From contig JAHRAN010000041.1 of assembly GCA_020027245.1 (NCBI GenBank), forward strand, positions 1-32,403: DNA of 32,403 bases, in the 5' to 3' direction. The position numbers and the translations under genes are program-made. Within the stretch, counting starts at the first letter, position 1. Every line of letters begins with the position of its first letter. The notes under the pieces are model-generated. The model did no database searches. It was not told the origin of the DNA and saw only the letters and a program-made list of their open reading frames with translations. Below are positions 1 through 9,289 of this stretch, piece by piece. Source of the DNA: Myxococcota bacterium (lineage in GTDB: Bacteria > Myxococcota_A > UBA9160 > UBA6930).

Positions 1-1742
1 CGCGCATCGGAACCCCATGCGAAGGTACGATGCGCGAAAGCGATCTCCAACCCGTAGCGGTCAAAGAGGAGCGGCCAGAGTTGCGCAACCTGCTCGCCCT
101 GCGTGATGGAGTTGCTCGCAACGAAGCCGACGCGCGGCGCTGAGCGATGTCCCCGCGGGGGGGGGGGCAACTGTGTGTATTCGCCAGCTTTAATGAACCA
201 CGCCGCAACATAATCGAGCGTGCCGCCACCTCCACCAAGACCGGCAATGCGATGCACCTGCGCGCGCTGCTCGTTGCTCTGATACTTCGCCCCGCCGAAC
301 GGCGGGTTGCCGAGGATGTATGAGCAGTCCCCGGGCGGCAGCACATCGGCCCAGTCGGTTTCGAGCGCGTCGGCGTGGTGAATGGTCGGCGATTTTTCGA
401 GCGGGATGCGCGTGAAGCTCTGCCCGAACTCGAGGCTGAGCTGGTTGTTCATGATGTGATCCATCATCCACAACGCCGTCTCGGCGATACGCACCGGGAA
501 TTCCTTGATCTCGATGCCGTAGAACTGGTCCACATCAATGCGCGACAGAATCTCCACGTTCAGTTCGCGCTGCTCCGTGAGTTCACGCAGAATTTCGATT
601 TCGAGCTTCCGAAGCTCCCGGTAGGCGATGATCAGAAAGTTCCCGCAGCCACAGGCCGGGTCGAAAAATTTCAACTTGCCGAGCCGCTCGTGAAACTTCC
701 GAAGCTCGGCGTGGCGACCGCTCTTGCGTTTTCTGATTCGCTCGAACTCGGCGCGCAGGTTGTCGAGAAACAGCGGGCCGATCACCTTCATGATGTTCTT
801 CTCGGTGGTGTAGTGCCCACCCGTCTGACGTCGCTCCACGGGATCCATCACCGATTGAAAGAGCGAGCCGAAGATGGCGGGCGAGACTTTGGACCAGTCG
901 AAGCGGCTGGCGGCGATGAGTTGCATGCGCATCTCGGAATCGAAGGCCGGGGTGCGCAGCACGCCATCGAAGAGATCGCCGTTCACATGAGGGAAGCGCG
1001 CGAGGTCTTCGTCGAGCTTCGTCTGCCGTTTATCTCCGTGTGTATTCAGCACCTGAAAGAGTTGGATCAAAAGCCCGCCGAGGTCAGAGCCGTCCTCCCT
1101 GGTGCGGTCGAGCAGAAAATCGAGAAACAAATCGCGCGGTTCGAAGATGCCGGTGTCGTCGGCGAACAGACAGAAGACGATGCGCACCAGAAGCCGCTCG
1201 AGATCGTGACCCGTATAACCGGAGTGCTCGAGCGCGTCGTGCAGCGCGCCGACGAGTTCTGCGGCGTCGTTGTTGACGGGGTCCTGGTCTTCGAAAGAGC
1301 GCCTTTCGAGGCCGAGGATGAAGCCGAATTTCTCGACATTATGCGGCAACTCCGGGAGCGCAAAGTGCGTTTCCTCGCGTTCGTCCCGGTCGAGCAACTC
1401 GAAGTTCTGAAAGTCGCAGAGCAGTTGGTAGCGCGGGCGTTCGCCTTCGGGCAGCGCGTCGAAGTACGAATCCGCCTGCTCGCGCGCTTTCTTGAGACTG
1501 CGCCCGGCGCTCTTTTGCTCGACGAGCAGTACGCCGGGCCAGAAGAGATCAATGTAACCGTGCGTGTTGTCGAGGCGCTCTACCTGCTCTTCGTAGCGCG
1601 CCACACTGCGGCGCTTCACACCGAAGATTTCGAAGAAGTCGTTGTAGAAGCTCTGCGTCTCGCTCTTTTCGCGGGTCGCACCTGCCCACTGCTTCGCAAA
1701 GGCAGCGGCGCGCGCGCGGATTTCGTTCCAGGACAGGCGCAT
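1..1742 (-). CDS. MmeI-like class I SAM-dependent DNA methyltransferase / single-chain restriction-modification protein (3' end outside window)
   Basis: Minus-strand frame not in the ORF track because it runs off the window. Translation MRLSWNEIRARAAAFAKQWAGATREKSETQSFYNDFFEIFGVKRRSVARYEEQV...; nuclease-like GYIDLFWPGVLLVEQKSAGR (D...ExK); methylase motifs FFDPACGCGNFL and ILGNPPFGGAKYQ; then VGFVASNSITQGEQVAQLWPLLFDRYGLEIAFAHRTFAWGSDA. Confidence 0.9.
   Translation of the reverse strand, partial: MRLSWNEIRARAAAFAKQWAGATREKSETQSFYNDFFEIFGVKRRSVARYEEQVERLDNTHGYIDLFWPGVLLVEQKSAGRSLKKAREQADSYFDALPEGERPRYQLLCDFQNFELLDRDEREETHFALPELPHNVEKFGFILGLERRSFEDQDPVNNDAAELVGALHDALEHSGYTGHDLERLLVRIVFCLFADDTGIFEPRDLFLDFLLDRTREDGSDLGGLLIQLFQVLNTHGDKRQTKLDEDLARFPHVNGDLFDGVLRTPAFDSEMRMQLIAASRFDWSKVSPAIFGSLFQSVMDPVERRQTGGHYTTEKNIMKVIGPLFLDNLRAEFERIRKRKSGRHAELRKFHERLGKLKFFDPACGCGNFLIIAYRELRKLEIEILRELTEQRELNVEILSRIDVDQFYGIEIKEFPVRIAETALWMMDHIMNNQLSLEFGQSFTRIPLEKSPTIHHADALETDWADVLPPGDCSYILGNPPFGGAKYQSNEQRAQVHRIAGLGGGGGTLDYVAAWFIKAGEYTQLPPPPRGHRSAPRVGFVASNSITQGEQVAQLWPLLFDRYGLEIAFAHRTFAWGSDA
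157..167 (-). repeat. 11-bp homopolymer (poly-C on coding strand) inside the MmeI-like ORF
   Basis: + strand ccccgcGGGGGGGGGGGcaactg. Coding strand TTG-C11-GCGGGG reads LPPPPRGHRSAPR and keeps upstream and downstream methylase frames joined. Confidence 0.9.
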
Positions 1743-4339: not shown

Positions 4340-4365
4340 TGCTGGCGCCAAACCATCCAACTTTT

Positions 4366-4509
4366 GAGAACCCTCACTCTAACCCTCTACCAAAGGGAGA
4401 GGGAACCGAACCTTAATGGGGCGGCGGTTTTGTCTCTTGTTCCCCTCTCCCTCCGGGAGAGGGGTTAGGGGAGAGGGTTCTTAAGGTTGGGGAGGGGCGA
4501 AGCCCCTCC
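4366..4509. repeat. Composite intergenic palindromic (MITE-like) element, copy 1
   Basis: GAGAACCCTCACTCTAACCCTCT...GGGAGAGGG...CCCTCTCCCTCCGGGAGAGGGG...GGGGAGAGGGTTCTTAAGGTTGGGGAGGGGCGAAGCCCCTCC: inverted termini, internal hairpins, trailing GGAGGGGCGAAGCCCCTCC hairpin. Confidence 0.75.
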
Positions 4510-9153: not shown

Positions 9154-9289
9154 AAGAACCCTCACCCCCCGCGCTCTCCCATAAGGAGAGGGGGGAATCA
9201 ACCAAGCGCGAGAGGGACTCTGCTCCCTCTCCCTGTGGGAGAGGGTTGGGGTGAGGGTTTCTTAAGGCCGGGGAGGGGCGAAGCCCCTC
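9154..9289. repeat. Composite intergenic palindromic (MITE-like) element, copy 2
   Basis: AAGAACCCTCACCCCCCGCGCTCTCCCATAAGGAGAGG...CCCTCTCCCTGTGGGAGAGGGTTGGGGTGAGGGTTTCTTAAGGCCGGGGAGGGGCGAAGCCCCTC; same termini and trailing hairpin as copy 1. Confidence 0.78.

What the first reader, a model, noticed from the sequence alone, without database searches (positions are those of the whole stretch)
61..190. Poly-C(11) tract inside an MmeI-like RM gene: candidate phase-variation switch
Seen: coding-strand GEYTQ-TTG-C11-GCGGGGACATCG..., in frame at exactly 11 C (GEYTQLPPPPRGHRSAPRVGFVASNSITQ). Adding one C shifts to a frame that meets a TGA at positions 61-63. Upstream and downstream motifs are both clearly methylase, and the C-tract peptide LPPPPRGHRSAPR looks like an insertion between them. 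Established: long G/C tracts cause slipped-strand phase variation of many RM genes. Because nuclease (D...ExK) and methylase are in one chain, a frameshift would remove the distal target-recognition part and should silence both activities together, avoiding self-restriction.
Basis: partly seen in the sequence, partly recalled or inferred. Interest (0 to 1): 0.75.

Follow-up and report, generated by a model that had tools for sequence, protein, structure and literature searches.

The report
Phase-variable restriction gene in uncultured bacterium
A run of 11 identical DNA letters inside a restriction–methylation gene of an uncultured bacterium looks like a real on/off genetic switch, because the same genome, and a related one from another genus, carry dozens of such runs in just the kinds of genes known to be switched this way (surface receptors, sugar-modifying enzymes, other DNA-modification genes).

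Summary
A C11 run (window 157-167, minus strand) lies in frame inside an MmeI-like Type IIG gene (3-1742, minus), which is cut by the contig end. One extra C meets TGA at 61-63. The run encodes PPPP in a coil loop between methylase motif IV and the next strand. That loop is 7 residues in 62 of 77 homologs, 13-14 in six and 15 here. No homolog has a C/G run above 7, so the tract is private to this genome.

The genome-wide context is the strongest evidence. The same 2.18-Mb draft has 28 G/C runs of 9 or more and 10 of 11 or more (about 0.6-1.1 expected). They favour TonB-dependent receptors (6 of 18), FkbM methyltransferases and secreted proteins; several are out of frame across the run, as in an OFF state. 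A sister-genus genome shows the same pattern: 12 receptors, about 10 Calx-beta proteins, DndC, a methylase-Mrr fusion, and a single-chain Type IIG gene broken exactly at G14.

I judge this a slipped-strand phase-variable gene captured ON: a new member of a known kind (Cj0031, JHP1272) in a lineage where I found no earlier report. Length variation itself was not observed; no reads or second strain were available.

The parts
3..1742 (-). MmeI-like Type IIG (IIL) restriction endonuclease-methyltransferase gene, 3' part missing (contig end)
   Evidence: 580-aa open frame; Pfam MmeI_N / MmeI_hel / MmeI_Mtase; PDB 5hr4; 80 relatives at 66-73% identity kept
157..167 (-). C11 homopolymer tract on the coding strand, residues 526-529 (PPPP); proposed slipped-strand switch, in the ON frame
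132..176 (-). Variable loop TQLPPPPRGHRSAPR (residues 523-537) between helix 511-524 and strand 537-540; 15 aa here, 7 aa in most homologs, 13-14 in six
   Evidence: predicted coil
61..63 (-). TGA met after +1 C (or -2 C): predicted end of the OFF product (560 residues)
1512..1550 (-). Nuclease motif D65 ... E75-x-K77 (VEQKS), invariant in 31 aligned homologs
636..662 (-). Methyltransferase motif I, DPACGCGNF (residues 361-369), invariant
297..308 (-). Methyltransferase motif IV, NPPF (residues 479-482), invariant, upstream of the tract

Best explanation
The C11 tract is a slipped-strand phase-variation switch. Gain or loss of C residues during replication moves the MmeI-like single-chain restriction-methylation enzyme between a full-length ON form (8, 11 or 14 C) and truncated OFF forms. 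Truncation falls after motif IV and before the rest of the methylase and the target-recognition domain, so methylation and cleavage should be lost together. The assembled genome shows the ON frame. The switch is one of roughly two to three dozen G/C-tract loci of this genome, alongside TonB-dependent receptors, FkbM methyltransferases and secreted proteins, i.e. a phasome whose RM member would vary phage and DNA-entry resistance, and possibly the methylome, between siblings. Shown: the tract, the reading frames, the loop position, the genome-wide excess and its bias to particular gene classes, and out-of-frame tract genes in the same and a sister genome. Inferred: actual length switching of this tract, loss of both activities when OFF, and benefit against phage.
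For: The tract is in frame within a conserved gene, in a tolerant coil loop. G/C run lengths in the genome are bimodal: 60 runs of 7 and 20 of 8, but then 9, 9, 5, 1 and 4 of length 9, 10, 11, 13 and 15. Extrapolation gives 1.1 of length 11 or more against 10 seen (P about 3e-7); a Markov model gives 0.6. Genes hit in this genome: TonB-dependent receptors on C55 (ON), C113 (ON), C141 (OFF), C155 (OFF), C89 (OFF) and C211 (5' side); FkbM methyltransferases on C29 (OFF), C132 (OFF) and C223; an S8-protease lipoprotein on C210 (OFF); LRR/secreted proteins on C197 and C65. Six of 28 tracts fall in receptors against 0.6 expected by length (P about 5e-5). Sister-genus genome G003 has 48 runs of 11 or more, with 12 of 27 receptors carrying one, typically between signal peptide and plug domain, and three DNA-modification genes: DndC (in frame), N6/N4 methylase-Mrr (in frame, in the loop after its DPPF motif) and a Type IIG enzyme whose halves match the same model on either side of G14 in different frames. 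Precedents: Cj0031 (PMC4889913) and JHP1272/HP1353 (PMC3936762).
Against: No tract-length polymorphism was observed; there were no reads, no second strain, and a single allele. None of 77 readable homologs has a tract here. The tract lies 157 bp from a contig end, and about 5 of 28 tracts in this assembly lie within 260 bp of contig ends, more than their share of sequence, so local assembly quality is uncertain. The C-terminal part of the gene is missing, so an intact gene in the ON state is not proven.
Confidence: 0.77

Rival explanations
1. Chance poly-proline codons: the tract is a passive by-product of CCC codons in a GC-rich (67.6%) genome, slippage-prone but not maintained as a switch.
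For: The tract is private to this gene among 77 homologs. Proline-rich loops without a tract occur in related genes (L034 ASPPPR). In C. jejuni most Cj0031 homologs also lack the tract, so presence of a tract in one allele need not mean selection (PMC4889913).
Against: About 0.009 such runs are expected per window and 0.6-1.1 per genome against 10 seen, and the length distribution is bimodal. The gene otherwise prefers CCG over CCC. Long runs concentrate in phase-variation gene classes while 7-8-base runs hardly do (at most 2 of 80 against 6 of 28 in receptors).
Confidence: 0.15
2. Sequencing or assembly artefact: the true run is shorter, or a poly-G read artefact near a contig end created it.
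For: The tract is 157 bp from a contig end. Relatives' assemblies have poly-G piles at contig ends typical of two-colour sequencing, and some G003 runs are of that sort (L153, L162, L175).
Against: The sequence continues in frame into conserved motifs on both sides, with a loop length close to that of six relatives. The genome's other long runs are mostly interior and cluster at the same point of receptor genes, which sequencing error would not do.
Confidence: 0.06
3. Rather than ON/OFF only, the tract alters activity: in-frame steps (8, 11, 14 C) tune loop length, or the OFF product keeps a function. In JHP1272 a second tract changes DNA specificity.
For: JHP1272/HP1353 show that tracts in Type IIG genes can switch specificity (PMC3936762). 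The loop varies from 3 to 15 residues among homologs.
Against: The window tract lies inside the methylase domain before the target-recognition part, so a truncated product should have no specificity; only one tract is seen in the part available.
Confidence: 0.06

Closest known systems
Cj0031 (Type IIG), Campylobacter jejuni NCTC11168 (PMC4889913)
   Same: Single-chain Type IIG enzyme with a poly-G/C tract in the coding sequence; length changes are predicted to switch methylation and restriction together; many homologs lack the tract; C. jejuni genomes hold 12-29 such tracts
   Different: Eco57I/TaqI-type domains rather than MmeI; tract at bp 2573 of 3732; switching shown by experiment; host-adapted pathogen
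JHP1272 / HP1353-HP1354 (Type IIG/IIL), Helicobacter pylori (PMC3936762)
   Same: C tract read as PPPP in a Type IIG gene whose recognition region was aligned to MmeI-family enzymes; first tract acts ON/OFF
   Different: Also carries a second tract that changes specificity; different organism; activity and methylome tested
MmeI (PDB 5hr4)
   Same: Same family and domain order over residues 1-580
   Different: MmeI has a short loop and no PPPP at this position
HmbR / HpuAB phase-variable TonB-dependent receptors, Neisseria meningitidis (PMC3786947)
   Same: Poly-G tracts within the reading frames of TonB-dependent receptors, as in the companion loci here
   Different: Here the tracts usually sit at the signal-peptide/plug junction, and a third to nearly half of all receptors in the genome carry one

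Membership tests
MmeI-like Type IIG (IIL) enzyme | N-terminal D...ExK nuclease domain (MmeI_N) | tested here: met
   Pfam MmeI_N E=9.6e-43; D65, E75, K77 invariant in 31 sequences
MmeI-like Type IIG (IIL) enzyme | Helical spacer and gamma-type methylase with motif I and NPPF motif IV in the same chain | tested here: met
   MmeI_hel and MmeI_Mtase; motifs invariant
MmeI-like Type IIG (IIL) enzyme | C-terminal target-recognition domain in the same chain | not testable with these tools
   Gene cut by the contig end; remainder not found in the assembly; full-length homologs of about 940 aa exist
SSR phase-variable gene | Homopolymer tract long enough to be hypermutable (9 or more G/C) | tested here: met
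   C11
SSR phase-variable gene | Tract in coding sequence, unit changes shift frame and lead to premature stop | tested here: met
   12 C or 9 C gives TGA at 61-63; 10 C or 13 C shifts frame but runs off the contig
SSR phase-variable gene | Genome shows excess of such tracts in surface, glycan or RM genes | tested here: met
SSR phase-variable gene | Tract length varies between cells or strains and changes expression | not testable with these tools
   No reads and no second genome of the species or genus among those held

The most novel reading that the evidence does not exclude
An uncultured bacterial family carries a G/C-tract phasome on the scale of Campylobacter (28 runs of 9 or more in 2.2 Mb; 48 of 11 or more in a 2.8-Mb sister genus). 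It switches the likely phage and nutrient receptors (TonB-dependent receptors, at a recurrent tract site between signal peptide and plug) together with several unrelated DNA-modification systems: MmeI-type IIG, another single-chain IIG, a methylase-Mrr fusion, and DndC of the phosphorothioate system.
Probability: 0.6. Interest if true: 0.65.

Novelty: new member of a known kind. Interest (0 to 1): 0.52.

Why it matters
Most experimentally described homopolymer phasomes come from host-adapted pathogens. Finding one, with RM genes in it, in an uncultured lineage known only from drafts would extend the strategy to that lineage and make it testable from existing metagenome reads: tract lengths can be counted directly without culturing. 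The G003 tract in DndC would extend switching to phosphorothioate DNA modification, for which I found no report in the library searched.

Tried and rejected
1) A tract conserved in homologs was tested and rejected: no C/G run above 7 in 77 readable homologs. 2) The rest of the gene was sought with a full-length relative; only a degraded 53-residue C-terminal piece with a TAG was found on contig C172. 4) Taxonomy: the 16S gene is about 79% identical to E. coli (a first try used the flank by mistake and found nothing). No database gave a name, so the lineage is left unnamed. 5) Raw poly-G counts in relatives are not all biology: many are piles at contig ends, so only G000 and G003 were used for the argument. 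G005 has 16 receptor matches but at most one run of 11, so receptors alone do not imply tracts. 7) The automatic 'same/different frame' flag mis-scored some genes (e.g. L167); one search was used for the final frame calls.

Full report
OBSERVATION. The window holds exactly 11 G at 157-167 on the + strand, C11 on the coding strand. The minus-strand frame is open from ATG at 1742 to the window edge, 580 residues. Recomputing the frames gives 8, 11 or 14 C in frame; 9 or 12 C meeting TGA at 63-61; and 10 or 13 C shifting frame without a stop before the contig ends. It is the only C/G run longer than 6 in the window; about 0.009 runs of this length are expected. The window is part of contig C200, from its first base, in a draft genome of 2.18 Mb in 223 contigs, so the gene is cut at its 3' end.

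THE GENE. Pfam finds MmeI_N, MmeI_hel and MmeI_Mtase, all far above cut-off. PADLOC calls it a Type IIG restriction enzyme-methyltransferase, E=2e-219. The only solved relative is MmeI itself, 5hr4, over residues 1-580. D65, E75 and K77 of the nuclease site, DPACGCGNF (motif I) and NPPF (motif IV) are invariant in 31 aligned sequences. The rest of the gene was not found in the assembly.

THE TRACT'S PLACE. The run encodes PPPP in the peptide TQLPPPPRGHRSAPR, after motif IV and before VGFVASNSITQG. In 77 homologs the same loop has 7 residues in 62, 3-9 in nine others, and 13-14 in six. The predicted structure places it as coil between helix 511-524 and strand 537-540 (mean pLDDT 79.4). The tract itself is private: no homolog has a C/G run above 7. 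That matches Cj0031, where many homologs also lack the tract (PMC4889913).

GENOME-WIDE CONTEXT. A search of the whole draft gives 28 distinct G/C runs of 9 or more (C84 and C211 share one at overlapping contig ends). Exact runs of 7 and 8 number 60 and 20. Continuing that decay predicts 10, 3.3 and 1.1 runs of at least 9, 10 and 11; observed are 28, 19 and 10 (P about 2e-6, 3e-9, 3e-7). A Markov model agrees. Long runs are therefore a separate population in this genome.

WHICH GENES. Reading frames and codon-position GC on both sides of each run, with Pfam, show the following. TonB-dependent receptors carry runs on C55 (in frame), C113 (in frame, inside the barrel), C141, C155 and C89 (signal peptide and plug in different frames) and C211 (just before the signal peptide). 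FkbM methyltransferases carry them on C29 and C132 (out of frame) and C223 (near the 3' end). An S8-protease lipoprotein on C210 is out of frame. A secreted LRR/PKD lipoprotein on C197 and a secreted protein on C65 have the run upstream. The window's MmeI gene is in frame. Six of 18 receptor genes carry a run, against 0.6 expected by length (P about 5e-5), while at most 2 of 80 runs of 7-8 fall in receptors.

SISTER GENUS. G003, same family but another genus, has 48 runs of 11 or more. Pfam of the flanking frames gives 12 TonB-dependent receptors out of 27 in the genome (P about 8e-9 by length), about ten long Calx-beta proteins, a carbamoyltransferase, and three DNA-modification genes. L161 is DndC with G11 in frame. 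L171 is an N6/N4 methylase fused to Mrr with G14 in frame, in the loop just after its DPPF motif, which is the same relative place as in the window. L173 is a single-chain Type IIG enzyme; its two halves match the same models (to position 363 upstream and from 388 downstream in PDLC03631) but lie in different frames across G14. L173 is in effect the OFF counterpart of the window gene. Some G003 runs (L153, L162, L175) look like read artefacts and are not used as evidence for switching. A relative with 16 receptor matches (G005) has at most one run of 11, so the pattern is not a property of receptor genes as such.

MECHANISM. Slipped-strand mispairing in long G/C runs is established biology (Campylobacter, Helicobacter, Neisseria). 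Here an OFF shift would end the product within the methylase, after motif IV, and remove the target-recognition part. Because nuclease and methylase share one chain, both activities should be lost together; the same prediction was made for Cj0031 (PMC4889913). That step is inferred. The companion switching of outer-membrane receptors suggests phage exposure as a selective setting, also inferred.

KNOWN OR NEW. Two close precedents exist: Cj0031 (Type IIG, G9 ON and G10 OFF; PMC4889913) and JHP1272/HP1353 in H. pylori, where a C tract read as PPPP lies in a Type IIG gene with an MmeI-like recognition region (PMC3936762). The window tract is therefore a new member of a known kind. The broader pattern, a large G/C phasome with several DNA-modification systems in an uncultured lineage, was not found in the papers searched, which is weak evidence of absence.

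LIMITS. No tract-length variation was seen; there were no reads, no second strain, and metagenome contigs could not be scanned. The organism could not be named (16S about 79% identical to E. coli). The tract is 157 bp from a contig end.

Noticed in passing
L161 (G003:C35:12000-17000), tract at 2455-2465: DndC gene of a DNA phosphorothioation system in a sister-genus genome carries an in-frame G11 run inside its coding sequence.
   Followed up: partly
L173 (G003:C53:5500-10500), tract at 2484-2497: Single-chain Type IIG restriction-methylation gene split into two frames exactly at a G14 run between motif I and motif IV.
   Followed up: yes
L125 (G000:C87), 2551-2571: Adjacent C11 and G10 runs (CCCCCCCCCCCGGGGGGGGGG) with the coding frame changing across them; the downstream part resembles a phosphotransferase (APH, Pfam).
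   Followed up: partly
L138 (G000:C172:13912-14070): A degraded C-terminal piece of an MmeI-like gene with an internal TAG, the only other MmeI-family trace in the genome.
   Followed up: no
L147, L148, L152, L156, L166, L174, L181 (G003): Very long Calx-beta repeat proteins, each with a G/C run of 11-19 nearby, mostly near the start of the frame: candidate phase-variable adhesins.
   Followed up: partly
window 4364-4484 and 9226-9244: Intergenic palindromic element CTCCCTCnGGGAGAGG, two inverted copies about 60 bp apart plus a similar palindrome near 9.2 kb; REP-like.
   Followed up: no
L124 and L133 (G000 C84 and C211 ends): The two contigs end in the same sequence around a C10 run before a TonB-dependent receptor, an overlap of about 127 bases as left by a k=127 assembly graph.
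   Followed up: partly
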